The notes beneath the pieces are model-generated. The model saw only the letters and a program-made list of their open reading frames with translations. It did not search any database and was not told where the DNA came from. From NCBI GenBank assembly GCA_911728435.2, contig OU452204.1:15376001-15440000 (forward strand): a DNA stretch of 64,000 nucleotides. The letters are read 5' to 3'. Positions 11,099-42,998 of this stretch are shown here, piece by piece. The stretch is from Apoderus coryli. Lineage: Eukaryota; Arthropoda; Insecta; Coleoptera; Attelabidae. The position numbers were made by a program, and so were the translations under genes. Within the stretch, counting starts at the first letter, position 1. The number at the start of each line of letters is the position of its first letter.

Positions 11099-11467
11099 TG
11101 ATAATTCAGGAAATGAAAGTCTCCACGAAATAAATTTAATAGATTCCTCTACAAATTACAACCATACATGTTTCGGAGCACATGCCCCATCATCAGTGGT
11201 TATGTAAGCTAACAATCATTATTATTAATATTGTTTAATCTCTGAGAAATGTATTGATTTCATTAAGTGGAAAAAAAAAATTATGTGTAAAGTCAAATAA
11301 CTTAATATGTACTAAAACTTAAATGTTAAATTGCAAATAATTTGACTATATTTTTTTATTATTCATCACTTGAGTTTTATTTTTCTTTTTCTTTTTGTAA
11401 ATCATTTGTTTAAATAAAAAGAAAGAAAGCAAATGTTATGCCAATTGAGTTGGTTTTTGGTTGTGGC
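11099..11467 (-). mobile_element. Hammerhead-ribozyme element, 369-bp insertion with 10-bp target duplication
   Basis: Compared with the paralogous long repeat at about 44.5 kb, which has a single ACTTTTTTAG at this place, this copy has the word twice (11089-11098 and 11468-11477) with 369 bp between them. These therefore mark the exact ends of an insertion and its 10-bp target-site duplication. The insert carries a hammerhead ribozyme (11156-11207, minus) and a CTCCAC...AATAAATTTAAT block just outside it. Those features are shared with the elements near 19.6, 24.4, 27.0, 32.5 and 42.6 kb. No protein is encoded. It probably belongs to a non-autonomous Penelope-like (PLE) or retrozyme-type family moved by reverse transcription; that assignment is inference. 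Confidence 0.8.
11156..11207 (-). ncRNA. Hammerhead ribozyme, type I, minimal stem III (copy H1)
   Basis: On the minus strand the core reads CUGAUGA, one extra U, stem II GGGGC/GCUCC closing an AUGU loop, then GAAA. Stem III is the self-complementary ACAUGU, and the predicted cleavage triplet is GUA (between plus 11165 and 11164). Stem I pairs AACCA with UGGUU and continues UUAC/GUAA across a two-base bulge. All the invariant core bases of the hammerhead family are present. Stem III of only two base pairs suggests action as a dimer, as described for Penelope-like and retrozyme ribozymes. Confidence 0.82.
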
Positions 11468-13082
11468 ACTTTTTTAGATTGCATCAATTTTGACAATTTT
11501 TTTTTTCGAGTTTTAGGGCGTTTTATTATTATCATTTTTTCATATAGAAACTTCAAAAATTTCGAAAGCATTTGTTGTTATACAGGGGTGAACAAAAAGT
11601 TACAGTTTACTCTGAACTTTTCAACACCCTGTAGAAAAACTCACGACCGAATAATGATCTTTTTTACAATATTTTGAAGCCCCATCTTTACTGAACAACT
11701 TCTTTTTTGATTCATATCCATATCTGTATTGTTAAAGGAAATAATGCAATAATGCTTTATTAGGGTAGTAGATAGTAAAGTATCTTCAGGTTCTACAGCG
11801 GCCTTTTATCAGAAATCAACGGTATTGTTTGCCTCAATGTTTGCTAATTTCTCGCAGGTACATTCTATATATTTATGGTATTTGAGGTTTAGTGCGTACA
11901 GCTGAAAAAATCACAAGAATTTCTAATAAACATGTATCAAAAATTGTTCATAGGGACTTTCAAGTTCTTCTGGTTGTAATTCCAAAATCTGTTTAAATTA
12001 CCAATTGAAATTTATTACAGTTATTACATATCACAAACTCTATATTTAGAGCAAATAACCGATGTTCAGTATCTACAGAGTGATACATTTTCAAGGGTCG
12101 GGCCGTATGCGTGTTCTCCACCGAATGTTTAGTATCTTACCATTTTTATTAAATTTGGGATTTGCACTATTTGACAGAAAACCCAACGTACACAAAATGT
12201 TTTGAACGGTAGAAAAGGAAGATTAAATGTTTATTATATCTCCTTGTAATTTTCTCAGCTTCAGTTACATTTATTTTGCTTCCGGTTATATCGGAAGTTG
12301 ATATGAACTTGGTTATATGAAATAGAACATTTGACCTTACTAGTAAAACATTAATTGTTTATTAACTAAAGATAGTTGTAAGCAGTGGCGGTTGGTCCAT
12401 AAGGGCACGTGGGTACGTGCCCTACCTAAAAAATGGAGTAAAATAAGTAATTTTAGATTTTATACTTCGCAACCAGACCAGTGTGATTTCGTTAGAATTT
12501 CCTATAAAATTTTGCATTTGAAAATTTGAATCGAAGACGGCCCTGTCTATGATCACTCTTGCAGCGCGTCTATTCACGGTACTGAAACAGAACGTAGGTC
12601 TTAGTACATATTATTACGATGCTCTTGAACACAACATTTTTGCGCCTCTATTGTTTTCTTTTCTATCGCGTGCGAAAAACAGACAGCAATTCATCGCTAC
12701 GCTATAAGCTAGTAACAGTAGAAATTAAACGCGTTTGTGACGTCATATTAGGGGTGCGGCCCTACCCATCAGAATAAAATTTGTGCGTGTGGTGTTGTTG
12801 TTTTTGTTTTCGCGATCGCGCTTTTTGAGTATTATAAAATGAATATTTTGATTTTCAACAATTACAATAGTAAAGATGAATTCAATGCAATATATGAATG
12901 TAAATAATGTTAAATTAACGACGACCGAATAATGATTTTTTTGCAACATTTTGAAGCTCCGTCTTTTCTGAACAACTTGTTTTTTTAATTCATACCAATG
13001 TCTGTATTCTTAAAGGAAAAACACTGCTTTCAAAGAAATAACGCAATAATGCTTTATTAAAAAAAAAATTAAAAATAGTATA

Positions 13083-14085
13083 TTGTGCAACGAACATGGA
13101 ATGACATATATTTCCTACGAGTATGATCGTTTGCAGCATGAGCCGCAGGCGAGTGCTGCAATTCATACGAGTAGGAAATGGTCATTTCATGTGAGTTTCA
13201 CACTATACTTTTTCTACGACTGTTTTAATGCTTTGGAATAAATTAAACATAATTTTTAGGAAAATATTTGTTTTTCGAAACTTACTCTTGTTAGCGTATA
13301 AGCCTAAATACGATAAATTAGAAGTATTTAAATTGACTAGGTGGTGTTAAACTATATTCACTATCACTATTTATGTGTTTTGAAATTAGCGAAATACTTA
13401 ATTACAATTATTATTAAATAAATACCAAAACTGTCAATTTGGTGTTTGTATTTTTGGCGTTGCTATGGTGATTTTTCATGCCCGCCGCTACTTTTGTCAT
13501 TACCAGGAAATTTTACGCAGTTACAATTTACAATCGGGCCTGTTTTAAATGTTCATTTCACTATAGGTGAATATTTTTGAGTCTAAAATAGCTTGGTGAT
13601 GTTCCTCTTGTAGCAACGATATTATTTTTATTCAGCATTCACTGTTGTTATTTCTTTCGATCAGTAGAGTTAAACATTAAAGAATTAAAACAGGAGTAAT
13701 CAAATCCTAATTTATCGAAACATTGGGATGTGTACGAGCGGTAAAGCACAGCCAACTTTGCAATAGTTTATTATTTGTTCTACGACTGTCTTTAAATGCC
13801 TTTATTATATGTTCAATCATGATTTGACAATGTAGTACATTGTAATGCTGTTTGCTAGGCAACTAGTGGGAAATATTATTACGCACGTGTAAATGATAAA
13901 CAGCATTACAATTTTTAATTCTTTAATGTTTAACTCTACTGATCGAAAGAAATAACAACAGTGAATGCTGAATAAAAATAATATCGTTGCTACAAGAGGA
14001 ACATCACCAAGCTTTTTTAGACTCAAAAATATACACCTATATTGAAATGAACATTTAGAACAGGCCCGATTGTAAATTGTAACTG
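13083..14085. repeat. Nested repeat with 170-bp inverted arms
   Basis: The segments 13519-13687 and 13915-14084 are near-perfect inverted copies (for example CAGCATTCACTGTTGTTATT and its complement). They face each other around about 230 bp. The outer part 13083-13500 is related, in reverse orientation, to 54204-54680: both contain CTACTCGTATGA-type words, TTAACACCACCTAGTCAATT and TGACAAAAGTAGC or their complements. A short inverted pair at 13110-13172 (CCTACGAGTATGA and CATACGAGTAGG) marks one end. The open frame at 13817-14098 (minus) is a by-product of this repeat. The family is unknown; MITE or foldback element is the best guess. Confidence 0.65.
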
Positions 14086-14599
14086 AACAAAAAGGCACAC
14101 AAATTTAATTTCGAATTTAAATTCACTCGTTCTCATTTTAAACGTATATACCTAGCTATAGCTAAACTATGTACCTACCTATATATACCATTTTGCGAAA
14201 AGCAACAGTTATTGTGTTTGCAATTTGATCTCACACTAGAGTGAGCACACGGTAAATTCGTAAATTACTATAGAGAGGAATAGAAACTAAATTTAAATTA
14301 GTGGGTGCCAGTCAGGCAGATCTTTTTGCTAGCTGCCAGTGTCGCAGACCATGAGTTTTGGGGAACTAGAATGAAGATACAGATACCGCTTTCAAGTTGG
14401 CATTATTAGCTTCATAAATGAATGCTTGGTAAAGATGTAAAAAGTGTAATTAACACTACATTTTTTGTGAGAAGCGCAACGATCGATCCGTGGTTTTACA
14501 AAATATTCAACATTTAGAAAATGACAATGAATTCCTCCATATATAAATAGATTAATTGCATAAATATGTTTTAATCGAGCCCCGGTCTATAATATTCCC

Positions 14600-17531: not shown

Positions 17532-19545
17532 TCACTGTCATAGTCGATTGAATAGACACTTGTATTTCGTGAACACTAGTTCCATAGTTATATTATTACA
17601 TTTTAATAGTCAAAACTTCATTAAAAGTTTTGTATGTCATCCGAAAGCTATTGATACGTCTCTGTACAGTTTCAAGGATCTCTTGAACTACATTTGATAC
17701 AGATCACTTACTTAGAGATATCAGTTTTATGGTAACAAAATACCACTAAATACTTGACACTTTTAGTAATTTTTCGAGCCACTGGACTTGGGCATATAAT
17801 AGTGTAATCGATATGGCTCTCTGTGGAACTCCCCTTTCATTTCATTTTCGACTTAGTGCGACAACGGCCTAACTGCCTATAAACCTGTAAATTGTAGAAA
17901 AAGGTTGAATAGAGCATTACGATTTCCGATTGTGTAACTTACACAAAATCAACGGCTTGTAATAGAAGGGCATTCCAACGTAGGTATAATAGTCAACACA
18001 CACTGTGCTACGTACAATTATTCATATAACTAGCTGAGCCTTAACCGATCTGTATATCCTGTATAAAAGAGTTCGATTGACAGGCACGCATTGGGGCTGC
18101 CATTCAGGTATATAAAAGGGCAATTTGTAAATTTCAATGCATGCCACGTGTCATCGAATCCGAGGAATGCACAACAGCTCACATGTGATGACTTAAGACA
18201 CACGTATTATGCGAACATTTGGTCTTCAGTACGACAAATTTTTGTTTAGTCTACGGTAGGTATTTGGTGTAAATTTTTGAAGCAGCTGGTAATGTTTTAT
18301 TTTTGGAATGGAATTGATTATGTCTTGGATTTATGAGAGTAAGTGTTGGCAAATGGTTTCTAATTCGTTACATTTATAATTTAGACACCAAAATATGCTT
18401 GTATTTTGCGGATTGTCAAAATATATTAACAGGGGCATATTCAGATTAAAAAAAAATCGTTTGGTATTATGAATATGTTCACTAACAACAACATAACGGT
18501 TCTAACGTTTTGTTTATTTTTTATTTCTGCATGATCTTTCCAAATACTTCTAGACTACGAACTACCGGACTATATAGACTAATTTTTGCCAAAACGCACA
18601 AACACGTAAATAGCTTCTCTATCAAGCGATTTTTTAGGGTGGGCATTATTTTGTGCCGTCAGTATTCTTCAATATCATCCGGATATTCTTCTTGAGTCCT
18701 ATCGACTAAATAACTACTTAGGTTTACCCAACCCCTGCTTCGCTGACCTGCCTATGCGTTAGAAATATGTGAATTTTTCAATCACAACTAGATATATTAG
18801 GTAGGTATGTATTCGTGTGATAAATTTATCCCTATGCTAAAAAACCTTTAATCTTAAAAGCAGGCCTACACAAAGACAAACATTCAACACACCTATTTGA
18901 ATAATAATATAAACAACAAACACTTGTGCATATTTACAATACCATGTTTCACTTTAATTTAGATATGCCAATTTTGGTAACATGTTGCGCCCATAACCTT
19001 TTTGAAATATTGCTTACTTTATTTTTATTTGTGATAAGATTGCTTTTGTGTTTATGCACGATAGGGTTGATATTTTCTGAAGTTATAACAACGTCAAGAT
19101 TTATGATGCTCTATTATAGAAAACACGTTAATATACAGTAACCCACAAGCAACATTCCCATTAATTGTATCCAGTGATGCCAATTAGAGAAATGACGCAG
19201 GAATTTTGCGTACTTAACTTTAAACAAAAAATGAAGAGGAGCTCGGATCTGTTAGAAGAATAAAGAATAAGAGTCATTATTTGTATACCAGGCACAATTT
19301 TCGTTTCTAGATAGATGTTAAATGTGGATACACAAAAATGCAAGCCCACCCATTCCATGAATACTATAAAGTTGAAAATTGCGTTGCTACTATCACATTG
19401 ACATCATAACATTCATTCTTTGCTTAAAACAATCTTCTGATAATTCTTGAACTGCATTTAATCTGAAAGGATTGGGCATATTTATGTATAAAAAAAACAT
19501 GCAGAGAAGAGACAAGTGGTTTCAACAAAAATTCAACATTCTAAA
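17532..19545. other. Unassigned sequence with a possible core promoter
   Basis: No coding region was recognised. The open frames at 18510-18695 and 18926-19141 are hydrophobic AT-rich translations without features. Two TATA-like boxes (TATAAAAG at about 18061 and 18113) are the only suggestive signals. Confidence 0.3.
18058..18145 (+). promoter_or_regulatory. Possible TATA-type core promoter
   Basis: TATAAAAGAG at about 18061 and TATATAAAAGGGC at about 18111 are good TATA boxes. TCAG at about 18104 and TCAATG at about 18138 sit roughly at the initiator distance. CACGTG is close downstream. There is no recognisable gene after it, so this may be chance in AT-rich DNA. Confidence 0.22.
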
Positions 19546-19652
19546 GAAGTAGTCCATGTCGAAGTGGAGTAGAATAATTATATATTCTTGAAATAAAAAT
19601 CTACCTCCACACAATAAATTTTAATAGATACCTCCAATAAATTACATATGTC

Positions 19653-19703
19653 GATAATTACCAAACATGTTTCGCAGCACCGGGCGCATCATCAGTGATT
19701 ATC
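19653..19703 (-). ncRNA. Hammerhead ribozyme, type I (copy H2)
   Basis: The minus strand has core CUGAUGA plus U, stem II beginning GCG and ending UGC (one C/C mismatch), GAAA, stem III ACAUGU and cleavage triplet GUU (between plus 19664 and 19663). Stem I pairs AUCA with UGGU, then has a three-base internal loop (AAU), then GAUA with UAUC. The internal loop in stem I is typical of natural type I ribozymes, where it contacts loop II. The weakened stem II suggests some decay. Confidence 0.75.
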
Positions 19704-20437
19704 AAAAATTCTTACGAAAAGCTATATCTTATTATCATTACATGTTACTATTGTTTAGGAATATTTATCAATTCTGGAAATAAGGATGCACATGTTATTT
19801 TAATTGTATTATAATGATTTTTAACTTCCAAACTTACCATTGTGTGCAAAAAAAAAAAAAAATTATTATTATTCAGTCATAAATTTTGTTTATTATTAAG
19901 TATTAAATTTTAGTTAAGACGTTAAAAACTCCTATTATTCATAATATGAGCTTTTATAATTATCTCTCACACAGCAATGGCGTTTTAAAAATTCTCAAAA
20001 AGAGATTTGATGTAATGTTGATGTTGTATTCTAGGATACAACATCAACATTACATCTATCCAATACATACAAAATCTCTTTTTGAGAAGCCATTGCTGTG
20101 TGAGAGTGCAATCAATTAAGAACGATTTTTGATAAATTAAAAATTTTTTCAATGATTTACAAAAAGAAAAGTATAATAATTATAAAAGCTCATATTATGA
20201 ATAATAGGAGTTTTTAATGTCTTAATTTTAATGTCTTAACTAAAATTTAATACTTAATAATAAAAAAATGTTATGACTAAATAATAATAAACCACAATGG
20301 TAAGTTTGGAAGTTAAAAATCATTATAATACAATTAAAATAACATGTGCATCCTTCTTTCCAGCATTGATAAATATTCCTAAACAATAATAACATGTAAT
20401 AATAATAAGATATAGCTTTTCGTAAGAATTTTTGAGA
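19704..20437. repeat. Near-perfect palindrome, arms of about 330-400 bp
   Basis: The left arm contains AGCTATATCTTATTATC, TTTTTAACTTCCAAACTTACC, ACTCCTATTATTCATAATATG and CACACAGCAATGGC. The right arm carries the complements of all four in reverse order. The central segment around 20037 (GATGTTGTAT, CTAG, ATACAACATC) has almost no spacer. The right arm has extra bases at about 20108-20165. Such a structure would fold into one long hairpin RNA if transcribed. The minus frame 20240-20473 is a by-product. Confidence 0.88.
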
Positions 20438-20593
20438 ACCAAGAATATAAAAATTCAACAGTTTGCTCTTCATCTAGGAAAGGTTCTTAATTTACTTTTC
20501 AACTATTAGATGCTGTAATTTTGATTCATTCGTGTCAAAAATTTAATTTTATGAAGCATTTTGTTCTTTTTGCTATTTCAAATGTCTTATTAG

Positions 20594-20652: not shown

Positions 20653-21279
20653 GTATTATAATAAAGATAATGTCAGTAGAGCCAGACTCTCCTAAATCCT
20701 AATCACTCTACTGTCAGAAAGCGTAGAATATTTTGCCATCATCTATTACTCATTGTGCTGCTCATCATTGAGTGATGTTAAAGTTCTCAATCTTAAGATT
20801 TAAATCCGTAACGTGATTAGTTTTCGAGATAGAGCCGGCGTACACTGGGGCCAAAAACCCAAAAAGTTGGCAATAAATCAAAAAACTAAATATCAAATAC
20901 ACCTAATCTAATATTATTTATCAATGCACGATACCTTCTGGCATAATAAACGCAATGAATGAGGTCACTAACCTCATTCAGTTCATCGTCACACGTCTCA
21001 GTCGATGTTCATTGGTTGCAAAGACTATACGTAAATTGTTACTGGGTAAATTTTAACCTATTTTTGTGTTTTGCTTAATTTAGATTATCTCAATTTTGTT
21101 AAACTTAGGAAATGGAACTTTCAAGTTCAAGTATGTGTTGTTATATAAATCAGTATAAACGTATAGACTAGTTAATATAAATTTATAAACATGGGTTCAA
21201 GCAAAAGTATGGTAATATTTTAAAATTTTTAAAAATTCTGAAAAATATAAAGGCTATTAGTTATATTTAACAAAAGAAA
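20653..21279. other. Unassigned sequence
   Basis: No gene was seen. A short tandem duplication of TCATTCAGT/ACCTCATT-like words occurs near 20960-20980. Confidence 0.3.
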
Positions 21280-21331
21280 CTTGTCTTGTGGTTCTTCCAC
21301 AACTGATGAGCCGAATTTAAGGCGAAACAAG
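21280..21331 (+). ncRNA. Hammerhead ribozyme, type III, canonical
   Basis: A complete hammerhead in the type III arrangement (open stem III) fits without mismatch. Stem III is CUUGU (21280-21284) with ACAAG (21327-21331). The cleavage triplet is GUC, with cleavage after 21285. Stem I is UUGUGG (21286-21291) with CCACAA (21297-21302) closing a UUCUU loop. The core CUGAUGA is at 21303-21309. Stem II is GCC (21310-21312) with GGC (21321-21323). GAAA starts at 21324. All invariant residues are present. Type III hammerheads in animals are known from cave-cricket satellite DNA. Only one unit is visible here, so the host repeat is unknown. Confidence 0.85.
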
Positions 21332-23321
21332 CTAGAGCATATCTTCCCCAGGGAAACTGGGTATTTAAGTTTAATTTGAAAACGTATTGGATAAAACCAA
21401 AATAGTTTTCTCTGAAACGGAGGGTATCATAGCTTTCGACCTTATTGGTCTCTTCAGTAGGACAAAATCAGTCCTAGAGCTGTGTAAATTATGTTTTCTC
21501 AAAGCAAAAGCAGAGTTTGATTCAAAGCAAAAGTCGAATTTGACAAAAGCAGAATCTTTCTCAAAGCAAAAGCTGAGATTTCGTTCTTTGCAAAAAGCAT
21601 TGGAAAATCGAGAATTTTCGCACATCAAACGATCGGGTTTTGACTGTCTTACGACTTTGTCATTTGACCGAAGATGTTTTGCGATTTTGAGATGATCTTG
21701 CGATCTTTTCTCTTCCTCGAAAATCCTTTTGCTATTAGTTATGTTCCAAGGCAGTCCAAGGTTTAATTTTATTATTTTTGTAATCAATACCGTTGGCACT
21801 TTTCAACGCCACTTCATTTTGGTGCAATTATTTGCACTTCTCGTCTCTATTTGATGTTTATCACAAGAAGAGAACTTCTTAATATTATGAGAAGTTCTCA
21901 AAAGAGTGAAATTGATGACCAATTTAGTTTTTTAAAAGAAGAGCTTAAGAAACGAATAAAATGTGATAAAACTTTATTGAAGTCCTTAGATAAAAATTAT
22001 TCTCACTTGAAAGTTCCTCACATTTTCCTAGTTTGATTTAACTACGTCACTGGACTAATATTAAGTGCTATTTATAAATGCGTACCTACTACCTACATAA
22101 TAATTATTTTCATCAATATTACATGTATGCATATTCGGCATTATTAATACATTTAATGATATACATGTATAGAGAGAATAGTAACATTATAACGATGTTT
22201 GCAATAATTTCCCCTCTGCATATCAAAACTCACTAACCACTAAATGTAAATTATCTATACATGATGGAATATAATTTATTTATATTCGATCGAATTCCAC
22301 AGAGGCACATAGCTTGAAATTGACACCGTATAAATTGATAAATACGCAAAATATATTTCTCATTAAACTGATGGTGCAGGTAAAATAAAAACAGTGAGAA
22401 AGATTGCTTTTAATTAATGACACTAAATTGCATGATGTATTAGTACAATATTTTACACACCACTGTTTACATCATACAGAGGTTGGATAAATAGTAGTGA
22501 TTCGGTTCGATTGGATTGCAACACCCGCTGGTTTCTGGCATCTGTAACGAAAACGGTCTATTTCAATTCAGTTCCAGATAATAGGCAGTTATAAACTTAC
22601 TTCGATCATGATTTCTTCCTTTATATTTTCTTGTCAAAGAGAAAAGTCAGGAACGTCATCACCCCAATTGCAGTCTTCTTCCCAAACTTTAGAAAAACGG
22701 TTAGACGGTTAGTCTTAGCAAGCGCGTGGCTTCACTTACTCTATGAGGTTGAGATTTCAGCTGCTGAAGATCAAGCAGGGCAACTTTAGTAAGTAAAACA
22801 TACAATGCTGGTTGTTTTCTGAGGCAATGGCTACGAATATTTTCCAGTAAACGTTGATTCTTGCGTTTAAGTTACATCTTGCATTTCTATGTATACGACT
22901 TTCTTACTGTTTTTTTTTTCTAATTATTTTTAATATATCGATACTTTCTATGTCTTGTTCACCTAAAGCAGCCTTCTAATCTTTTATGTCTAGTTTTTTT
23001 TTGTACGCTGAGGTCTTCTTCACAAAGTCTTGCACAACGGTTGAGATTTTAGCCGCAGCGTATAGCTGCTGAAGTTGGTTTATCATAATCGGTCGTGACG
23101 TAGAACAGCTATAGTAAAACAGTACCTATAGCTTTTTCATTGTCCTTGTGGTACAGACAGTAGTACAGCCCAAGTCTATTTCTTCATCTAAACTAGCTGA
23201 TGCGTTGGCCACGGAGATTTGCATTTAAACGTTAATTCTGGTTATAGAATGAATTTGTGTCCTCAAAAATATAAATGAAAAATAATTTACTGGCATAGCG
23301 GACAAAATGACTGGTTTTACC
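21332..23321. other. Unassigned sequence with a short repeated motif
   Basis: Within 21478-21590 the word CAAAGCAAAAG recurs at irregular spacing with AGAGTTTGA/GAGATTT-like flanks, giving overlapping open frames on both strands (21387-21695 plus, 21371-21799 minus) that look repeat-derived. An open frame at 21851-22036 encodes a Lys/Glu-rich 61-residue peptide without recognised features. Two weakly similar tracts (about 22670-22780 and 23000-23110, both with GTCTTCTTC and ACGGTT) may be old duplicates. Confidence 0.35.
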
Positions 23322-23664: not shown

Positions 23665-24339
23665 ATCCGAAAAGTTTCCCTTCAGCGTTTCCCAGAAAAT
23701 TGCCTGTACATGACAATCTGAAGCAGAATGACCAGGTATCTATCCAGCAAAATTCAGATTATTATTTATTTATTATTCTACTTACTAATTCTGCGTGATA
23801 TCCTAAAGTTGTCGGTTTTTGGGGAAAGAAGTTTACGTAATTACTGTCCTAGGTTCTACTGACTCACTCAATAGGGCAATAATTATGTAAGCTTCTGATA
23901 ACATATTTACTACGTTGTTTATCAGAAAAAAATTGGAAAATATAATACGAGAAAGAGCAATTGTGTTTCAAGAAATTAAACCCTCAAGTCAACGCTGAGT
24001 CAGGGAAAACAGTGGAAATTTTAGACCTAAAGTGTACATGTTTCTGAAGAATTCTTCCTGATGAAGTCTTGTTAGTTCGGACTTCATCTCATAACTCATA
24101 ACCTTTTTCTGTATCTTTAGAATAACGGTTACCTCATAGCCTTTATAAGAGACCCTCGAAATATGACTTTTACATTTAGGCTAATAGTTTAATATGGTAA
24201 ATAACAAAGTTTTTTCACACAGAGAAGAAAGCAGAAAGTAAATCAACAAATAATGTTGATAATAAACTTTCCAAATCGTCTTTTTTAAGACAAAACGTAC
24301 GAACGAACAAATCTTAAACGAAAAAGTATTTATTTACTA
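23665..24339. other. Unassigned sequence
   Basis: No gene, RNA or repeat could be supported. Confidence 0.3.
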
Positions 24340-24790
24340 TTTGAATAAAACGACGTCTACTCCACAAAATGATCTTTATATATACGTTGAAATTCTTATA
24401 TTAGTTGCCAGACATGTTTCGGACTACACGTCCATCATCAGTGGCTAAGGAACCTTGTATAATGTAGTTAAATGTGAGGGTTACACTTCATACGAAATTA
24501 ACATAGAGATTTATATGGATTTTTGATTTAAACGTTTATACAATATCTGCGATGTAATATTATTATACTTGTAGGAATCTTACCATTTTGTTGGAAAATT
24601 GGTGTTAAATTAATAAAATGAAAATAAAAATAAAAATGAAGTTAAATTATTGAACATTTGTAGATCATTTCTACTTGTATTATTAGTTTTTTCATTTTTC
24701 TCATCTTTGAGGAAACAAGTTAAATTTCAATTGAACTGGTAAGAGCCCACCAGTACAGTCGTTTAAGGATCACAAATAAGAAAAACAAAA
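24340..24790 (-). mobile_element. Hammerhead-ribozyme element (copy H3), limits approximate
   Basis: The hammerhead at 24401-24450 is preceded on the plus strand by TCTACTCCACAAAATGAT, corresponding to the CTCCAC block of the other copies, and followed by about 300 bp of AT-rich body. Its ends were not defined by a target duplication. No protein is encoded. Confidence 0.5.
24401..24450 (-). ncRNA. Hammerhead ribozyme, type I, canonical GUC (copy H3)
   Basis: The best-preserved member of the family: core CUGAUGA plus U, perfect stem II GGAC/GUCC with loop GUGUA, GAAA, palindromic stem III ACAUGU and cleavage triplet GUC (between plus 24411 and 24410). Stem I pairs GCCA with UGGC, then has an internal loop AAC, then UUA with UAA. 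No core residue is missing. Of all copies here it is the most likely still to cleave. Confidence 0.88.
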
Positions 24791-25890
24791 TGTCGAGTGG
24801 TGAGGATGAAGATAGTTATATCTATATTATGGTTTCAGCCAAAGCTACACATTTGGTGTTTGAGGTGAGGTGAGGAAGTCAAATGAGGTGAGTAGATGAG
24901 GGTTGTTTAATTTATAATGTATTAAGTGAGTGAATTTTGGTAATATGTTGAGAGAAGTTAATTGTTATTTAAAAAAAAGAAAAAGAAAAAGTATTTGCTC
25001 AGTAGAACACTGTGAACCTCAGCTTAAGTGTGAGCACTTTTGACTGCTTCAATTGTTCTTTTAATATTTCCCTGCATGCTACTTGATATTATAAGCATAA
25101 TATGTATTACATCTTCCTCGTATCTGCTAATAGTACACAGACATTTTACGCACTAATGTCTGCATGTAAATTTATGTTGGTTTCATGAAATTTTACGGTT
25201 GAACTCTTCATTTTCTTGTTTCTTTCCTTTCTTTTAATTTTGCTCATTTCTCGATGCATGAATTTTAATATTTTTGCAAAAGAATATAAAGTGGACGATT
25301 ATTTTCAATTCGCCTGTCTTGTCAGATGTTCTCATCGATCGATCTGTGTCCCTCTTTTTTTCGTTGATGGCAGGCAAACGTTAATCGATTTTGGTTGACA
25401 TTGATGTTCTAACCAAAGTATGCAAAAAAAAAGGTTGTTTATCAATGTAAAGGTTTTGCATTGTTCTTTTGGCAACAGGTACCAAATCAAGCAATAATGT
25501 TGTCGTATAACAACAAAGAGCTATTCAGTGAGCGTTTGAGATGTTTATGAAAATAAGTTAACGGGACTAACAAGACGAAAATATCATTGTGGGTCTACTT
25601 AAAAAGAAAGAAGCACAACTGTGGTCCAATCGAAATCCTGATTGTGTTTCCGGTAAAATCCGTTAATATGTTGACTTGTTAAGTATTCGCTTTGGCGTCA
25701 AAGCTTCAAAATTTTTGCGTCCGCAAACTTCCTGTATATTCGGAGTAATTTTGAAGATATTTCAAATCATAGTGTCGTTTAATGTTATTTTTTCAGAACA
25801 GCTATGGATTTGTTCGGCCTCTGTATGGTGAGATATGCATTATGTATGTAGAAGGTATGTGTTTAAATATATCTACTGTGCTTAAATGCA
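24791..25890. other. Unassigned sequence
   Basis: A G-rich stretch with GAGGTGAGG words occurs at about 24860-24905. The open frame at 25216-25398 has no recognisable features. Confidence 0.3.
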
Positions 25891-26060: not shown

Positions 26061-26867
26061 TTTTCATTGAATATATTAATACATAAAAAAAGCTCTGGTC
26101 AACGAAATACTTAATATTTAAATAAACTTAACTATATGTTTAACTTGACTACGTGTGGTTTATTTATGACTAGCGACGAATAAAGTATGTGTTATTAGAC
26201 AAATGGATATGTGTCTGAATAAATTCTTTTTCTGTATTCAGCACACAGAGAAAGGGATGAATTATGTTTACGCAGATAGAACAGACGTACTATGAATATT
26301 TTTAGTGTAATGTATGTTCCACATGATGTGGTATATCATACAGGGTGTCCAGTATAAAATGATGGGTGGAGAAACAAAGTCGGTTTAATGGACACAAAGT
26401 TGCGTGTTGATCTGCCGAATAATACTTCAGGTCAATTTTGTGTTATATCCATTACGTTACGTTTACAGTGTCATACACAAAGTGCGCATCATATGAGAAA
26501 TTTTTTCTTTAGCATTTAAGTAAGTTTTTTAACTATGCCATGTGACGTTAATTACCTCGCTTGTCAAAATTGATATTTTTTAAAAAAGTCAAATGGATGC
26601 AACGTTGCAATAATTTTTAAAATTACCTTTGCATATAAATTTTTATCGATTTTTTATTAACTAGATTATTATTTGCGTCGAATCAAATACAAAGAAATGC
26701 TTGTAATTTATTTTTAATTGAGACTTGAAACCCAGAAAATATCTTACTTTAAAAACCAGAATGAATATGAACAGAACATTAACTTAGCGTGCTATGGAAA
26801 CAATTTAGCTGTCAAGTGATAGCTGCCAAAGTTTGTAAACAATATAATAAGTATTTATATTGTAGAA
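26061..26867. other. Unassigned sequence
   Basis: ACAGGGTGTCC at about 26340 resembles the terminus of a Tc1/mariner-like element, but no partner was found. Nothing else was recognised. Confidence 0.3.
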
Positions 26868-27200
26868 GTAGTCCATTTTACTTGGAGTTTATCCCTTAAG
26901 AATCTGCTCCACACATAAATCTTTTATTATAATTTTGTTCAAACTAGAATCCTAACACCATAGATGTTTCGAGACTTAAAATTCTCATCTTCAATGGTAT
27001 AATATATAGGATATTGAACAAAGAAAATGACAATTCTTGAAAATTACATCGATTCAATTGTAGAAACTTCATTTTATTGACTTAAAATTAGCATCTTATT
27101 CCAACAAAAATAAATTCGTTAAAAATTGATATGACGAGATACAAATTTAATCAAATTAATATATGCGCAGGACTTTAGGATGTGAGAGCTCGAAATATGA
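26868..27200 (-). mobile_element. Hammerhead-ribozyme element, diverged (copy H5)
   Basis: It begins GAAGTAGTCCAT (26868) and TGCTCCACACATAAAT, as in the copies at 19.5 and 42.5 kb. The hammerhead motif lies at 26952-27005. The 3' limit is arbitrary. Confidence 0.55.
26952..27005 (-). ncRNA. Hammerhead ribozyme, diverged core (copy H5)
   Basis: The minus strand reads UUGAAGA in place of CUGANGA, then U, perfect stem II GAGA/UCUC, GAAA, then ACAUCUA. Stem I pairs ACCA with UGGU and continues. The C3-to-U change and the loss of the ACAUGU palindrome suggest an inactive relic. The predicted cleavage position would be between plus 26961 and 26960. Confidence 0.5.
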
Positions 27201-28570: not shown

Positions 28571-29850
28571 TAATTAATAATAATAATAATAATAAACAGT
28601 TTATTTGCAGACATAATATACAACATAATATACAAAAAATTACAACATACACAAGAAAAAAAATATCTGCAAAAAGGGTTAGAAGGCAGTAAAACTGATA
28701 TGTGTATCCTAACCCAGAAATGAAATATAATTATTTATGACCCAAAAAGACAGATTATATATATGTATATATAAATACCATCTGGACAACACAATTATAA
28801 AATAGATAATAAACACCAAAAACAAAATTATCAAACAATATCTATACCAAATTCAATAGACTTTTTCGTAGTACTAATCGAAACGTCGAAGGCTTATAAG
28901 TCTTATAATTATGCGGAATTCCGTTATACGTGCAATAAATGTTGTAAGTAAATGAGCGCTCGAACAACAATGTACGGTGAGGAGGTGGCGATAAAAGTCC
29001 TCTAAACCTGAGGTTGAGGTTATGCACGTCAGATCTAAAGCCAATTTTCTGTGTGGGTACAGCATTTTCAAAGCAGAATAGGCCTTACTGATACATTTTG
29101 TGACATGGCCTGTAAACCTGAGGTCCGAATCCATCTCAACTCCCAAATTCCTAGCTGAATTAAAATAGGTTATAGGTGTGTCGCCAATGCTAACTATAAG
29201 ACCCTGATGAACCAACGTCTTGTTCCTACCAAACGCCAACATCTTTGTCTTGGATGGATTTATTTTTAAATTATGTCTGACCAAGACAAAAGTGACGTCA
29301 AATCTCGTTGTATTTGTTCACATGCGTTGACGATATCCTCTGTATAAAATGAAAATCTAAGTTGACTATCGTCCGCGTACATATAGGCGCTACAAAAATT
29401 TAGACAAGATGGAAGATTTGACGTATATAAGCAAAAAAGTAAGGGACCCAGAATCGATCCTTGTGGAACACCGCAATATATGCCTCCTATGTCAGAACAA
29501 CCATTTTGAGTTTCCACGAACTGACTACGACCATGTAGATAACTGTAGAGAAAATCTATAGCACCTGAAGAGAAACCTGAGAAATTGAGGATCGCTAATA
29601 GAATATCGTGACTGATAGTATCAAATGCTTTAGAGTAATCAATTAGAAGTAGAGTAGAAGATTTACCACCATCCAGGTCACGCAAAATGTCGTCTACAAT
29701 ATCAAGAAGTGCAGTCGTACAACTAAAGCCCTTACGAAACCCGGACTGTGTTGACGGTAGTATATTATGTTTTGTTAAATGAAATTTAATTTGTGTGGTC
29801 ATGACCTTTTCCAAAATTTTCGAAAGATGTGACATTATAGACCCCAACAT
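28571..29850 (-). pseudogene. LINE reverse transcriptase fragment with internal deletion
   Basis: The frame 29266-29850 (minus) encodes most of RT: LSKILEKVMTTQIKFHL, QSGFRKGFSCTTALLDIVDD, DYSKAFDTISHD with the first catalytic Asp, GVPQGSILGPLLFCLY, and the catalytic YADD box in AYMYADDSQL. Frame 28874-29284 continues with NPSKTKMLAFGRNK and LGVEMDSDLRFTGHV. The last segment (28842-29027) gives HNLNLRFRGLLSPPPHRTL. Compared with the related copy at 33182, about 110-120 codons between LYPHRK and FRSDVHNLN are missing. The 3' UTR ends in an ATT tail at 28571-28595. There are frameshifts at about 29270 and 29040. It is 5' truncated and not functional. It resembles jockey/CR1-group insect LINEs. 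Confidence 0.93.
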
Positions 29851-31665
29851 CCTACAGCGCAGTCATTTCTTCAGAATTCATTCACTCATTCGAGAAAATG
29901 GAAGGTTTTTGATGCTGTTGCATTCTTATTCCACTATATCAAGGTTTATAGCTTCTATTTTGAAATTGGAATATTTTTTTATTGTCTCTGTAAGTTATTA
30001 TTTTTTGTTTGGAACTGGGATTTGATTCCATACACATTAAACAATTATTATAATAAGTAGTCAACAATTAAGATTCCTGTCGTAAAAACTGCCAGAAACA
30101 GATGTATGAAATGTGAAGTGAAAGAGAATAAAAAAAGAATCATAACAGCCTAAAATATACTCGGCATTTCATAAAAAAAAACAAGTTTATATCATAATAT
30201 ATTCTCAGCCACAAAACAATTCTCAGTACGTCACTGCATTCTTATTTGCCGTACCTATTAAAAGTTTCGTTAGCGCATTTTTTGGTATATGTTAAATAAA
30301 GTAATATGATATACTGTCACACCGGGTATATTGTAATAAAAATATTGCATCCGCTGATTAATAATTTATAAAAGTTCATGACTCTAACATCGGTATTGTA
30401 TCTACGAAATAGACAAAATTTGCTGATTCACATTTTTCCACACAAGCGGTACGACGCCAGGAATAGACAACTACATTGGAAAAAATCAAAACTAATAAAT
30501 TTTTACGCAACAGGGAAACACGGGGTCTTTTCTCCAACTTCGGCAAATTGAACTCCAAGTTTTAGAAGCGACGAAAAGCGCTAATCTCCCCGTTGAGTAG
30601 TGTCTTTAAGCTTTACGGTTTATCAACGCGAGGTTATAGTATTAGTATTAATAATTATAATGTTGAACATTTTTTGGAACTGAAAATTACCGGAAAAGAT
30701 CAGCTGTGTCGTTTACGAGGGAGAACCATATCCTCCTCATGTGAGCGTGGGCGATTCCCGAATAGCTCTACAAGCCAAGTGAGTAATTTATTGATGCCAA
30801 AAGTATTCAATCAACAAATATCAACCCCTTTTCTATATTCTATATTTATTTTAACATGGTGAACTCTTCTTACAAAGCGGAGGTCCAATCTATAGTTTCT
30901 AGTTCTTATTGTGACAATATAATAATAAATTTCGATGATTTTTTAGAAAACTAAACTTTTAAGAAACCCATTTGATTATATTCAGCATGTATATTTTGAG
31001 AAGCCCTTATAGTTAACAACATTTTGGCAACTTAACGGAAAACAAGTTAAAATTTAATATATTGTAGACAAATTATTCATTTTTTCTGACATTTAAATCA
31101 TATAAACGCAAAAGCCATAAAAAAATATGCGAATTAATGTATTGAAAGAAAAAACGGATGAAAAGACTAAACATGAAAATTTGATGAAATCATCACATCA
31201 GGAAATGTCTGGTCTCTGCACCATGCCATTTTCACTGAGTTCGATCATATTTTACGCAACATTAACCAATGATAAAAATGACTTGAATCCAATCGATGTG
31301 GCACGTTTGCACTGATGGTTCACATAAACTATATAATAACAAGAAATCACTGCGTGATTTCCCAGTCGTTTTGTGGTAGTTTTATCTATGACAAAAGTCA
31401 TTGAGGGTTATAAAAAAAAAATCAAAAATCTATATATCTCCTAAAAATATTGAAGATAAATTGAAACATTTTTGAGTTACCCCGTAGATCACCTCTACGA
31501 GCTTATAGTTACACGCTAAAGAAATCATGAATTCAAATCGAAATCAAAAGATTATTCAAAATATTACTTTTTTGAAATAAACAAATACATTTTTGACTTT
31601 TTTGAAATATATTAGATAGGTATTTTAAATCTCCTAGTCTAAAAATGGCTGCCTATAATATGATT
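29851..31665. other. Unassigned sequence
   Basis: The open frame 30593-30862 (plus) contains a short segment ending at AAG followed by TGAGTA, which could be mistaken for an exon end, but no domain was recognised. Nothing else is supported. Confidence 0.3.
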
Positions 31666-32458: not shown

Positions 32459-32766
32459 TATTAAAACAAAGCAAACAAAACGTCACCTCCACAAATTTAA
32501 TCATCCAAAAATCACTCTAAGTGAAACATATTTCGAAAGCAGTAGCTTTCATCATCAGTCACAAACTTTACCTAAGTAAATTGAAATGAGTTAAAATTAG
32601 ATTAGATATAGATGTTAAAACTAAAATACTTACCAAAAAACAGTGTCATAACCATGTTGGAGCAAACATTAAATTTTTAATATACTTTTTATACTTGTCT
32701 ATGTTAAAAACGGACAATGGATGATTAAATTTATGGAGGTGACGTTTTGTTTGCTTGGTTTTAATA
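32459..32766 (-). mobile_element. Hammerhead foldback element with 49-bp inverted ends (copy H6)
   Basis: The left end 32459-32507 and right end 32718-32766 are inverted copies with about two mismatches, including CAAACAAAACGTCACCTCCA and its complement. A hammerhead (32515-32565, minus) lies directly inside the left end. The reverse-oriented block ATGGACTACTTC at about 32787, which in other copies lies before the CTCCAC block, follows the right end. No protein is encoded. The same plan is seen at 42555-42998. Confidence 0.75.
32515..32565 (-). ncRNA. Hammerhead ribozyme, type I (copy H6)
   Basis: Core CUGAUGA plus U, perfect six-pair stem II GAAAGC/GCUUUC with loop UACU, GAAA, stem III AUAUGU and cleavage triplet GUU (between plus 32525 and 32524). 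Stem I pairs GUGA with UCAC. Stem III differs from ACAUGU by one base, leaving an A-U and a U-G pair. All invariant core residues are present. Confidence 0.77.
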
Positions 32767-33169
32767 CATTGCACTCCACTGAGAGAATGGACTACTTCTT
32801 CAAGTTATATAATAATAGTAATTATGGCATGAGAAACTGTTGTTGTTATTATTATCACCCTCAAAATACACCCCTCCCCCATCTTCACCCATAGATCGAA
32901 ACAGTGCCGGCATCAGCGTTGCAATTTTTTCGATTTTCTTTTTCTGATTCAAAGCTAATTTAAAATTAAGGAGAAGTCAGCAGAATATGAAAAAAAATGC
33001 AATAAAACTCTAGAGTCAGCGTCCACAAAATATATTGAAGAGTCAAAATCATGTATAAACCAAACATGTAGGTATCGGCAAATTAATCTCTCATCGCAGT
33101 AGTAGTACAGCTACAATAAAAGCGTTCACAATTGGTACATTTCTATCAGATCATTGCAATCATATAAAA
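32767..33169. other. Unassigned sequence before a LINE
   Basis: The first 30 bases belong to the repeat family above. The rest has no recognised content and may include decayed LINE sequence. Confidence 0.3.
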
Positions 33170-34142: not shown

Positions 34143-34150
<8 letters not shown>

Positions 34151-38790: not shown

Positions 38791-39304
38791 GATATGCAAT
38801 AAAATACAATATTAATCAATTCATTAGCAAACAAAAAAATACTTAACACTTGTTAAGAAACATTTGAAAATAACATTTGCCATACCTTAACATGCCACAA
38901 ATGTTTTATTAAGCAAAAAATCACAGTCAACAAAACCTACTGCATTATGTACACTCTCGTGTATTTTACAACTGCGAGCTAGGTGAGGTCTGTGCATTTA
39001 TGTCAATATCCGCTGATAAATGATTATTAGCGATATTTATGTAAATGTATTTCTATTCTCATTATTTTGAGGATTAACCATTTCAGATAATTATATTTCT
39101 CTATATAGATATCTCCGTATAAATCATGTAAGGAATTTCTAAGTTAATTCAAAGTGAAATTTGTTTCCTTCAAGTAAACATTCATCATGTTTTTGCTTCA
39201 GTTATTTAACGAAATGTGGCAGAGGCAAAAAATCCAACGAACTTGATATTAATATAGCAGTTTCTTGTATATTACAATTAGTCGAATAACACAAAAGAAT
39301 AATA
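38791..39304. other. Unassigned sequence
   Basis: No gene or repeat was recognised. Confidence 0.3.
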
Positions 39305-39905: not shown

Positions 39906-42528
39906 ACATATTTTTGATTATATTATAACTTGTCGGGAAAGTTTTGGGATGACACAACCAATTTTTTTATTTTACTTAATCGAATAACTTAAACAATGGA
40001 ACCCACACAGCATGTAGCATTATTTGATGGAATGACCTTCAATTGGTCAGTAACAGCCTTTAATTGAGCTGAATTTTCAATTTCAGGAAGACTCAAATGT
40101 CGGAAGGACATAAGAATTGCGAAGAAAACTGGGCTTTGAGAGAGTAAATAATTCATTTTGGAAAGTAATCCCTATTACTGTAAGGAGATGAGCTTATGAA
40201 TCTTTTTCTGAAGTAGATGCCTTTATTATATAATTAATTTTGGTGCTTTATGCACAAAAATATCTTGAATACTTTCGAACGTTTTTTTATAGTACATTCA
40301 AATACCTTTCGAAATCATAATATGCTACAATCAGTTGTCCTTGATGTTGGAACTCCTGTTGTAGACCCATGTCCATAGTTTCTCAAGTCAAGTTTTGCTA
40401 TTTGGCCTTGAGTCCCAAACTATGTTTGTTCTTGTCGTTGGCTAGTAGAGAAGCAAGCCATGTTCAACATTTTTGACTTTTTCAGTTCATTCTTTCATCG
40501 TTGACTTAAGAAAGGCTGAGGTATGGCGTTTTATACTCTGGCGCTTAGTTTTTAGTTTTTTTTTTATGTTAATCGATTTCAAAAGTTCTTTCTGATGCAG
40601 AAAAGTTTTTTTAGAACTGTGTCATAGCAGTTTCGCGTTTTATTTGTTATAATTTTAGGAATGGTGAAATGAACCAAATCTATTATCATTATAAATTTTT
40701 ATCGGCTTCTAAAATTGATGGATTTTTGATTCCTGGTTTCGCACCTATTGGCAACTTTCCTTCCGCCAAACACCCTGATCTCTTAAAAAACTACTGTTCC
40801 CTTAGACCTGCTAAAGTTTTAGAAACTTTTCTTTGGCACACAATTTAGAAGTTAGAGTTTTGAAGCATAATAGCAAAATATATTTAGCGCCCTAAAGATA
40901 ATAGTATTGCATCTTTGTTTGCTTTGTTTCTACACAACATCCGGGCAGGCCGCTTTTCGATTTATGTTCATAATCAATTAGAAGAGTCTTTGGTGTAAAA
41001 TGAAAACTAAAAATCGCGTTTTAACATTTGGTGTTAACAAAATGCCCGTCGAGATTTTAGAGTGTTTTGGTTCCTAATAATTTTCGCATATTACCAACAT
41101 CTAACTTTTGAATTTTAAACGTTACATAGGTCTATTAGCAGTAGGAGCAGCACCCTGCTAGAGTTGCGGAACACCGAAAATGCCTTTGAAATAAGTTCAT
41201 CTGGTAATTAACAATTTATAATATGGTTATAGGTGTCAATTTTTCTTCCTATTGGAAGGCCGATGGTTCATAGTGCTAAAATGTGTTATCGTACGCCTCT
41301 GAGAAATGCTGTTGCTTGAAAAAACATAAAAAAACTATAGAATTTGTTACCTAAGCTCAACATCTTTTGTGCTGCTATAATGGTTGTATATCATTAATAT
41401 GTTACTAGTTATTTAAATTTTTGGTGATACTCGCCCACCGATGTTTTGAAGTTTAAAATGCTCACCTCTCTTTCTCTCACTATCCTTTCTTAACACATTT
41501 TTTTATATTTATATTATTTCTTCGAGGGCAGCAACAGCCAGAGAACAATGGACGATAAATAATAATATAAGGTGACTTTTTATGCATTTTAATTAATTAA
41601 AAGTCATATAAGACGAGATATTTTATCACTAGGCACGAGTTTATAAATAATTTTTGTAGTAATGGTTTTGTGTACCGTGCGGCGGTTTAGTTACACGTCG
41701 AAAATACATTTTATTGTATTTTTTCAATTTGATGGTCTAATTCATAGCCTTTTTTAATATTAATAATGATAATAGTTACACCGGTAAAGAGCAAATAAAA
41801 CTTAAAAAAATATGTAAAAGAATGTGTTTGGCGACATCTAGTTTTCTTTGGTAGTACGCCGAGCGAACAACAATTCACTATATCGACTGCTTGGGAGGTC
41901 ACTGACCCCATAAAGTACAACTACCAACACATAGATGCGCCGATACTCCCTTAAGCGGGACCGCCTACATTAGAAATGGGCATGTTTAACAAAACAAGAG
42001 CCCAGTTCCGAAAACAAAATATTATAAATGAATGTGCCAAAAATAGACCCAATTTGGAAAAAAACAACAATAGTATTATCATATACACAAGATAATTATC
42101 TAAACAACCCTAACCTACAGTCACAAAATCATAACATTATCCAAATAGTCATCTAAATAGTCTCACTGATTCAATAACAAAAATTTCTTTACATTTCTTT
42201 TAAAATTGAGAAAATGCATGTTTCTGTGTTCGTTCGATACGGAACTATAAGCTCAAACGACGTCATATGAAAAACTTCTCTCAAAAAATGCTGTTTTATG
42301 AACAGTCACAGATAGGGTAGTTCGGTGTACATAATATTAAGAGATCTTATCATACCCTTGTTTGCGGAGGCAGTTCCAAATTACTTCAGAACGCATTCAT
42401 AAGCGCAAACCAAGATTTCTTTATGCTTTCTAAACCAAATACCGTGTTGTACGCTTATGAAAGCATTCTGAACTGGTCCGGAACTGCCTCCAAGAACCCG
42501 CCTCATATTATCCAACTAATTCGAAAGA
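39906..42528. other. Unassigned sequence
   Basis: About 2.6 kb without a recognisable gene, RNA or repeat. The open frame 41711-41920 (minus) has no features. Confidence 0.35.
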
Positions 42529-42998
42529 AGTAGTCCATACTGAAGTGGAGTAGAATAATTTAATATTCTTGAAATAAAAGTCGACCTCCACACAATAAAT
42601 TTAATAAAAATCCTCAATAAATGTCACCATACATGTTTCACAGCTCCGGGCTGCATCATCAGTGGTTATAATAGAAAATTGACGAAAAGCTATGTTATTT
42701 AACTAAATTAGTACATATTATTTTGGGAATCTTATTTATCAACTCACTGTGCGAAAAAACAAAAATTTTTTATTGTTAAATTAATTGTTGTTAAATATTT
42801 AAACTAAAACTAGTGAACTTAAAAAGTTCACATTATTACTAATGTAAGCTTTGTAACATTTTTCTTTTTATAAATCATCGAAATTCTTAAAACTTCTTTC
42901 ACCACGAAAACACTAGATTGCAGTTTCACACTGCTTTGAGGATTTTTATTAAATTTATTGTGTGGAGGTCGACTTTTATTTCAAGAATATTAAATTAT
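42529..42998 (-). mobile_element. Hammerhead foldback element with 62-bp inverted ends (copy H4)
   Basis: GAAGTAGTCCAT at 42529 starts the shared block. The segment 42555-42616 is repeated as a perfect inverted copy at 42937-42998 (it includes GTCGACCTCCACACAATAAA and its complement). The hammerhead lies immediately inside the left arm. Read in the ribozyme sense (minus), predicted self-cleavage would create an RNA whose 5' end begins about ten bases before the inverted segment. No protein is encoded. The right arm ends cleanly at TTAAATTAT before unrelated sequence. Confidence 0.82.
42617..42672 (-). ncRNA. Hammerhead ribozyme, type I (copy H4)
   Basis: Core CUGAUGA plus U, five-pair stem II GCAGC/GCUGU around CCGGA, GAAA, palindromic stem III ACAUGU and cleavage triplet GUA (between plus 42630 and 42629). 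Stem I pairs ACCA with UGGU before a larger internal loop. Stem II is closed by a G-U instead of the usual G-C. All invariant core residues are present. Confidence 0.78.

What the first reader, a model, noticed from the sequence alone, without database searches (positions are those of the whole stretch)
11156..42672. A dispersed family of minimal type I hammerhead ribozymes
Six sites (11156-11207, 19653-19703, 24401-24450, 26952-27005, 32515-32565, 42617-42672) fold on the minus strand into the same plan: CUGAUGA, one extra U, a 4-6 bp stem II of different sequence, GAAA, a two-pair stem III (usually the palindrome ACAUGU) and stem I starting CCA/UGG. Stem II sequences differ but pair in each case (GGGGC/GCUCC, GGAC/GUCC, GAAAGC/GCUUUC, GCAGC/GCUGU, GAGA/UCUC), which is strong covariation evidence. 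Penelope-like elements and retrozymes are known to carry such hammerheads. All six being on one strand may be chance. The inference is an active or recently active self-cleaving RNA element family.
Basis: partly seen in the sequence, partly recalled or inferred. Interest (0 to 1): 0.88.

Follow-up and report, generated by a model that had tools for sequence, protein, structure and literature searches.

The report
Penelope-type insertions carrying hammerhead ribozymes
Six short retrotransposon-like insertions in this arthropod-like DNA each carry a tiny, probably self-cutting RNA motif of the kind known from Penelope-like elements, and two further insertions nearby carry other hammerheads, one of them with a hammerhead on each strand as in viroid-like RNAs.

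Summary
In detail: six related minus-strand sites. Five keep all core residues with stems of at least 3 bp (0.025 expected per random 64 kb); the sixth (26952) has a broken core. Stem II differs in all six yet pairs in 23 of 24 cells (2 of 720 reassignments as good). Rfam misses them (the 24.4-kb copy alone).

Most likely they are non-autonomous, Penelope-like (PLE) solo pseudo-LTR insertions: ATG at stem II with the predicted cut 25-28 nt later, a shared downstream module whose last part (tail) is optional, inverted left ends in three copies, duplications of 10-16 bp in four, an empty site for one. No PLE protein was found within 4 kb upstream of each. Cleavage is not shown.

Two more hammerhead inserts lie in the window: a 222-bp retrozyme-like insert (45449-45670; 13-bp duplication, empty site) and a 463-bp stretch (21268-21730) with two facing type III hammerheads, one per strand (0 in 600 random windows). 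Alone, each folds as a hammerhead; in longer context the two cores pair with each other. This may be a DNA copy of a viroid-like RNA.

The parts
11099..11467 (-). PLE-type insert 1 (369 bp), hammerhead 11160-11203, tail-less right end, no inverted left end seen
   Evidence: 10-bp duplication CTAAAAAAGT at 11468-11477 and 11089-11098; empty site 44563-44572 in the paralogous repeat
19539..20448 (-). PLE-type insert 2 (910 bp), hammerhead 19659-19702, tailed right end, inverted left half (arms 19696-19963 / 20176-20441, 85%)
   Evidence: 12-bp duplication TGTTGAATTTTT at 20449-20460 and 19527-19538; the left end starts with nine bases complementary to CAAGAATAT of the tail region, a short match
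24332..24984 (-). PLE-type insert 3 (653 bp), hammerhead 24406-24448, tail-less right end, no inverted left end seen
   Evidence: 12-bp duplication AAATACTTTTTC at 24985-24996 and 24320-24331; the left flank is T-rich, so weaker
26866..27001 (-). PLE-type copy 4, degenerate hammerhead 26956-27001 (UUGAAGA core), tailed right end; left end and duplication not found
32459..32800 (-). PLE-type copy 5 (about 342 bp), hammerhead 32519-32565, tail-less right end, inverted left end carrying the tail (arms 32459-32507 / 32718-32766, 96%); no duplication found
42523..42993 (-). PLE-type insert 6 (471 bp), hammerhead 42625-42669, tailed right end, tail-less inverted left end (42555-42617 / 42936-42998, 63 of 63; the outer 5 bases of the left arm overlap the duplication)
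   Evidence: 16-bp duplication with one mismatch at 42994-43009 and 42507-42522
44563..44572 (-). Empty site for insert 1 in the second copy of a ~1.4-kb repeat
45449..45670 (-). Retrozyme-like insert (222 bp, 42% GC) with type I hammerhead at 45521-45564
   Evidence: 13-bp duplication TAAACAATTAATG (45436-45448, 45671-45683), empty site 12349-12361; Rfam Hammerhead_1 29.3 bits, E 0.0039, below gathering 34; whole insert folds with z -5.6, but the predicted minimum-energy fold of the core is not the hammerhead
21279..21332 (+). Type III hammerhead, plus strand, predicted cut after GUC (21285)
   Evidence: alone, its minimum-energy fold is the hammerhead; Rfam Hammerhead_3 20.8 bits, E 0.011 in a 76-base search, gathering 48.5
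21430..21485 (-). Type III hammerhead, minus strand, facing the first; predicted cut after CUC (21477)
   Evidence: alone, its minimum-energy fold is the hammerhead; Rfam Hammerhead_1 17.6 bits, E 0.13 in a 301-base search, gathering 34
21268..21730 (.). 463-bp stretch holding the two facing type III hammerheads, taken as an insert
   Evidence: flanking 15-mers 14 of 15 identical (21253-21267, 21731-21745); comparable flank pairs in 7 of 3000 control tests (1500 positions, two sides), limits set after the pair was seen

Best explanation
The six sites are short, non-coding insertions built, and most likely mobilised, like Penelope-like elements: solo pseudo-LTRs (some with a second, inverted pseudo-LTR) that carry a minimal type I hammerhead at the point where a full PLE would begin its reading frame. 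Proposed mechanism: a transcript of the pseudo-LTR is recognised in trans by a PLE protein encoded elsewhere; the protein nicks an AT-rich target on both strands with a 10-16 nt stagger; reverse transcription starts inside the RNA at or past the downstream hairpin (GTGGAG...CTCCAC), giving ends with or without the tail (34-43 nt here); extension on both strands leaves head-to-head inverted ends and a target-site duplication. The hammerhead cuts the transcript 25-28 nt after the ATG, probably as a dimer through ACAUGU or with protein help. Shown here: hammerhead architecture and covariation, shared tail module, end structure, duplications, empty site. Inferred: trans mobilisation, both-strand priming, cleavage.
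For: Five complete hammerheads against 0.025 expected. Stem II covariation. An ATG starts at stem II in six of six and the cut is predicted 25-28 nt later, as described for the Anolis PLE (ORF starts at stem II, cut 26 bp later; PMC11167929, main-text section read). Shared module: BLAST links 11.2, 19.6 and 42.6 through hammerhead and tail and 24.4 to 11.2 over the hammerhead; 26.95 and 32.5 join by alignment only (GTGGAG in six of six at 60-79 nt; GGACTACTTC in 19.6, 26.95, 42.6 and the inverted left end of 32.5). Right ends are tailed (19.6, 26.95, 42.6) or tail-less (11.2, 24.4, 32.5); in each of the three copies with an inverted left end only one end bears the tail, tail length 34, 37 and 43 nt. 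Rotifer Penelope copies are reported with an inverted 5' pLTR, an optional 31-bp tail on one of the inverted pLTRs and a 9-bp duplication (PMC3846280, passages). Tail-less right ends lie about 91-103 nt after the ATG, near the 111-118 reported for Anolis. Duplications of 10, 12, 12 and 15/16 bp in four of six copies; random positions give >=10 at 3.4% and >=12 at 0.5%. Empty site for the 11.2-kb copy.
Against: No PLE-type reverse transcriptase or GIY-YIG domain: Pfam scans of 4 kb of sense strand from each of six sites gave one RVT_1 (29.3-29.9 kb, LINE-type by its motifs as I recall them) and one sub-threshold DHX37_C match; a GIY-YIG motif search of all six frames of the window found none. 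The frame from the ATG closes after 3-15 codons in six of six copies, before the tail. Two of six copies show no duplication. The right-end positions of all four copies with a duplication were set in the control after the candidates were seen, so that control flatters them. Isolated cores do not fold to the hammerhead as minimum energy. The host genome could not be searched, so no full-length parent was seen.
Confidence: 0.85

Rival explanations
1. The six are metazoan retrozymes: small circular RNAs cut by their own hammerhead and reverse-transcribed.
For: Type I hammerheads on short non-coding inserts with duplications; a retrozyme-like insert is present in the same window.
Against: No tandem units seen; the hammerheads are the minimal PLE form; tailed and tail-less ends and inverted ends are reported for PLEs. 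The retrozyme-like insert at 45.5 kb looks different.
Confidence: 0.06
2. A DNA transposon (MITE) family with terminal inverted repeats that happens to contain a hammerhead-like hairpin.
For: Inverted ends with duplications in copies 19.6 and 42.6; inverted ends in 32.5.
Against: Duplication lengths vary (10, 12, 12, 16); ends are unequal because the tail is on one side only; no inverted end was seen in 11.2 or 24.4; stem II covaries while core residues stay in five of six.
Confidence: 0.05
3. Decayed, catalytically dead remnants: the family once used a hammerhead, but none of these copies can cut. (Compatible with the best explanation, so the odds do not add to one.)
For: One of six cores is broken (26952); a 2-bp stem III is weak; in four of six isolated cores (11, 24, 32, 42) an AUG/CAU pairing is preferred to the hammerhead; the Anolis hammerhead cut only with its protein (PMC11167929); no RNA data here.
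Against: Five of six keep all core residues and a GUH triplet; the inverted match of 42.6 is 63 of 63 identical, so that copy is probably young.
Confidence: 0.35
4. Chance hairpins.
For: Individually none reaches an Rfam threshold.
Against: shared flanks. In viral contigs 25 stretches (several duplicates of one another) matched CTGATGATG-N8-22-GAAACATGT and 0 of 25 had a stem II of 3 bp or more, which shows what chance matches look like.
Confidence: 0.01

Closest known systems
Penelope-like elements with pseudo-LTR hammerheads (Poseidon of Anolis, PMC11167929; Penelope families of Adineta vaga, PMC3846280)
   Same: Minimal type I hammerhead at the ORF start, optional 30-40 nt tail, inverted pLTR, short variable duplications, AT-rich targets
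   Different: No coding region found here; short inserts (about 342-910 bp, five copies with both ends placed); the frame from the ATG closes early in all six
Metazoan non-LTR retrozymes (Cervera and de la Pena 2020, PMC7229834)
   Same: Fits the separate 222-bp insert at 45449-45670: type I hammerhead, GC below 50%, duplication longer than 4 bp, no LTR
   Different: A single unit seen here, not a tandem; circular RNA not testable; not the same kind as the six sites
Type III hammerheads in HDV-like agents and in termite and dipteran DNA (PMC7936874)
   Same: Type III hammerheads in arthropod DNA; in the toad and termite RNA agents one per polarity; a cUC cut site with GAAAg is reported for the toad agent and occurs in the minus-strand motif here
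   Different: The termite genomic motifs were isolated single motifs of an atypical long-helix form; here two face each other within 210 bp with a 6-bp stem I closed by a short loop
Carnation retroviroid-like element CarSV and plant viroid-like RNAs with hammerheads in both polarities (recalled, plus search listings)
   Same: Hammerheads in both polarities and, for CarSV, a DNA counterpart (recalled)
   Different: Plants; no sequence comparison was made here

Membership tests
Penelope-like element (six sites) | Minimal type I hammerhead lacking a proper helix III | tested here: met
   Five of six complete, sixth degenerate
Penelope-like element (six sites) | Start codon at stem II, cut ~26 nt later | tested here: met
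   ATG there in six of six, predicted cut offset 25-28; but the frame closes after 3-15 codons
Penelope-like element (six sites) | Two alternative 3' ends 30-40 nt apart (tail) | tested here: met
   Three tailed, three tail-less right ends; tail 34, 37 and 43 nt in 32.5, 42.6 and 19.6, the last slightly over the reported range
Penelope-like element (six sites) | Inverted pLTR and variable short target-site duplication | tested here: met
   Inverted left end in three of six; duplication in four of six
Penelope-like element (six sites) | ORF with telomerase-like RT and (canonical PLEs) GIY-YIG endonuclease | tested here: not met
   None found. Hence not filed as PLEs proper, only as PLE-type solo pseudo-LTR insertions that work like them
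Non-LTR retrozyme (45449-45670) | Type I hammerhead in a 150-450 bp insert, duplication longer than 4 bp, GC below 50%, no LTR | tested here: met
   the core's own minimum-energy fold is not the hammerhead and loop contacts were not tested
Non-LTR retrozyme (45449-45670) | Tandem repeats and expressed circular RNA | tested here: inconclusive
   Only one unit in the window; expression not testable
Viroid-like or retroviroid-like RNA copy (21268-21730) | Hammerhead in both polarities (as predicted structures) | tested here: met
Viroid-like or retroviroid-like RNA copy (21268-21730) | Unit-length rod-like or strongly self-paired circle | tested here: inconclusive
   Hammerhead block z -5.0, remaining part z -0.2; whole as circle z -3.7 (plus) and -2.4 (minus), 60 shuffles each
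Viroid-like or retroviroid-like RNA copy (21268-21730) | Replicating circular RNA of both polarities in the host | not testable with these tools
   No transcriptome access
Deltavirus-like agent (21268-21730) | Delta antigen reading frame | tested here: inconclusive
   The two longest frames overlapping the stretch matched no Pfam family; no dedicated delta antigen search was made

The most novel reading that the evidence does not exclude
The 463-bp stretch at 21268-21730 is a retrotransposed DNA copy of a viroid-like circular RNA that replicated in an arthropod: it bears complete type III hammerheads, close to the usual plant/viroid geometry, on both strands, facing each other with about 190 nt between cut sites, an arrangement that only an RNA copied in both polarities would need. 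It sits among Penelope-type insertions and a retrozyme-like insert, so a Penelope or LINE enzyme could have made the copy.
Probability: 0.3. Interest if true: 0.85.

Novelty: new member of a known kind. Interest (0 to 1): 0.5.

Why it matters
The six sites can be recognised by hammerhead, tail, inverted ends and duplications together although Rfam models miss them, so such elements may be undercounted. Two copies of one repeat serve as each other's empty site for a PLE-type insert and a retrozyme-like insert, which gives clean boundaries for both. If the opposed type III pair is a copy of a both-polarity RNA, it would be a DNA trace of a viroid-like replicon in an arthropod and would make the question of where such RNAs came from testable by searching arthropod genomes for facing type III pairs.

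Tried and rejected
Rfam at gathering and at E<=10 does not find the six sites, nor the 24.4-kb copy searched alone. A search of viral contigs with CTGATGATG...GAAACATGT gave 25 stretches, 0 of 25 with a stem II of 3 bp, so chance. Two patterns made from the type III motifs gave 0 matches in viral contigs. PLE protein signatures were sought and not found. Vienna folding of isolated cores prefers an AUG/CAU pairing to the hammerhead in copies 11, 24, 32 and 42, and something else in 19 and 26; the retrozyme core also did not fold to the hammerhead. A 2-bp stem III formed across a dimer cannot be modelled there. A profile search with the six copies and two inverted arms recovered them (circular, since it was built from them); the next match has E 0.43. 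The plain MAFFT alignment misplaces stem II columns, so pair counts were made by script. I considered that inverted arms end at the hammerhead cut site; they stop 13 and 18 nt short, so this was dropped. Other pattern or core hits (8800, 25936, 27527, 44010, 45500) were not returned by the complete descriptors and were set aside. The relaxed type III control gave a mean of 0.035 per random window (maximum 2); the stringent one gave 0 in 600. The empty-site and frame details were rechecked.
Full report
Observation. The six minus-strand sites exist as described, with corrections. CTGATGA...GAAAC occurs 8 times in the window against 0.19 expected from 100 shuffles; 4 of the 8 are among the six sites. 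A fuller descriptor returns five of the six sites and nothing else; 40 first-order random sequences average 0.025 with a maximum of 1. The sixth site (26952) has UUGAAGA and a CUA triplet. Stem II differs in all six copies and pairs in 23 of 24 cells, a level reached by 2 of 720 reassignments of the 3' strands including the true one; stem I pairs in 24 of 24 (24 of 720). Rfam models miss them (24.4-kb copy alone). A 2017 review says that PLE hammerheads are usually minimal versions lacking helix III (PMC6155905, passages), so this is expected.

A shared element, not just a motif. BLAST links 11.2, 19.6 and 42.6 over hammerhead and downstream module, and 24.4 to 11.2 over the hammerhead; 26.95 and 32.5 join by alignment only. 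GTGGAG lies 60-79 nt after the ATG in six of six. Three copies (19.6, 26.95, 42.6) continue through a second half (CTCCA, then GGACTACTTC) and three (11.2, 24.4, 32.5) stop earlier. Copies 32.5 and 42.6 begin, on their left, with an inverted copy of the tail region (96% over 49 and 63 of 63 identical; the outer 5 bases of the latter overlap the duplication); copy 19.6 begins with nine inverted tail bases followed by an inverted upstream half (85%). In each of these three copies the tail is on one end only; its length is 34, 37 or 43 nt.

Boundaries. Direct duplications flank 11.2 (10 of 10), 19.6 (12 of 12), 24.4 (12 of 12, T-rich) and 42.6 (15 of 16); none was found for 26.95 or 32.5. Random positions in the window give an exact match of 10 or more in 3.4% and of 12 or more in 0.5% of 3000 trials (slack 8), but the right ends of the four positive copies had been set after the candidates were seen. 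For 11.2 the evidence is independent: the ~1.4-kb repeat around it has a second copy at 44.5-46.3 kb that lacks the insert and has the target once.

Mechanism. [quoted passage not shown] Here the ATG starts at stem II in all six copies, the predicted cut is 25-28 nt later and tail-less right ends are about 91-103 nt after the ATG. I therefore read the six as PLE-type solo pseudo-LTR insertions moved in trans. A PLE ORF was sought and not found (one RVT_1 match at 29.3-29.9 kb is LINE-type by motifs recalled), and the frame from the ATG closes after 3-15 codons in all six copies, so they are not filed as PLEs proper. The rotifer paper proposes self-priming on antisense templates for inverted structures; the present copies, with different initiation sites at their two ends, fit two separate initiations at least as well, but this is inference. 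Cleavage itself is not shown; the Anolis hammerhead cut only when protein was present, and isolated cores here do not fold to the hammerhead as minimum energy.

Host. A 372-aa transposase frame (46924-48042) has 3234 relatives with E<=1e-20; of the 120 listed, the four that carry an organism name (Centruroides, Euwallacea, Anthonomus, Bemisia) are arthropods (taxonomy recalled). The window is therefore taken as arthropod; the species is unknown, and the genome search did not complete (16 calls).

Second element. A 222-bp insert at 45449-45670 (42% GC), in the second copy of the same repeat, carries a type I hammerhead (Rfam Hammerhead_1 29.3 bits, E 0.0039, gathering 34). It has a 13-bp perfect duplication, and the first repeat copy is its empty site. 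It folds with z -5.6, although the core's predicted minimum-energy fold is not the hammerhead. This fits the description of metazoan non-LTR retrozymes (PMC7229834, abstract and passages). The two repeat copies thus serve as each other's empty site, one for the PLE-type insert and one for the retrozyme-like insert.

Third element. A type III scan finds two complete hammerheads facing each other, plus strand 21279-21332 and minus strand 21430-21485 (relaxed control 0.035 per random window, maximum 2); a stringent version finds these two and 0 in 600 random windows. Each folds, alone, to the hammerhead as its minimum-energy structure (-13.6 and -14.2 kcal/mol). In the 281-nt context the two cores instead pair with each other on either strand, with the stem I hairpins kept (z -3.9 and -2.0); this speaks against cleavage of the folded transcript, though such a rod is also what viroid-like RNAs form (recalled). 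Rfam gives 20.8 bits (Hammerhead_3, E 0.011 in a 76-base search) and 17.6 bits (Hammerhead_1, E 0.13 in a 301-base search), both below gathering; the whole-window search listed neither. A 15-mer (14 of 15 identical) flanks a 463-bp stretch around them; comparable flank pairs occur in 7 of 3000 control tests, with limits set after the pair was seen. The hammerhead block is highly structured (z -5.0) but the rest is not (z -0.2), so the insert may be a chimera. The minus motif has the usual type III sizes (6-bp stem I with a 7-nt loop, 4-bp stem II); the plus motif has a 5-nt loop I and a 3-bp stem II. [quoted passage not shown] both-polarity hammerheads in plant viroid-like RNAs appear in search listings. 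My searches (listings with the starts of abstracts only, capped lists; passages of PMC7761336 and one passage of PMC3088659) showed no description of a facing pair in animal DNA; this is not proof of absence. An inverted duplication of one hammerhead element is the main alternative, though the stems of the two motifs differ and each pairs fully.

Verdict. The given finding is real and is a new member of a known kind. The surprising part of the window is the opposed type III pair, on which I place 0.3 for the viroid-like reading.

Noticed in passing
21268-21730: 463-bp stretch with two facing, complete type III hammerheads, one on each strand, flanked by a 14-of-15 duplication.
   Followed up: yes
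45449-45670: 222-bp retrozyme-like insert with a type I hammerhead, 13-bp duplication and an empty site at 12349-12361.
   Followed up: yes
11050-12919 and 44530-46264: Two copies of a ~1.4-kb repeat, about 91-93% identical in the longer aligned pieces; each holds an insert the other lacks.
   Followed up: partly
21498-21580: Short imperfect repeats of CAAAGCAAAAG inside the 463-bp stretch, origin unknown.
   Followed up: no
46924-48042: 372-aa open transposase frame (DUF4817; DDE_3 sub-threshold) with a 96% identical relative in public contigs, possibly recently active.
   Followed up: partly
19994-20086: Long hairpin between the inverted halves of insert 2 (weak mir-987 match, E 3.4), like the junction palindromes reported for Penelope copies.
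   Followed up: partly
2109-2612, 29266-29862, 7972-8433: Two reverse transcriptase (RVT_1) fragments and one mariner-type transposase fragment (Transposase_1) by Pfam.
   Followed up: no
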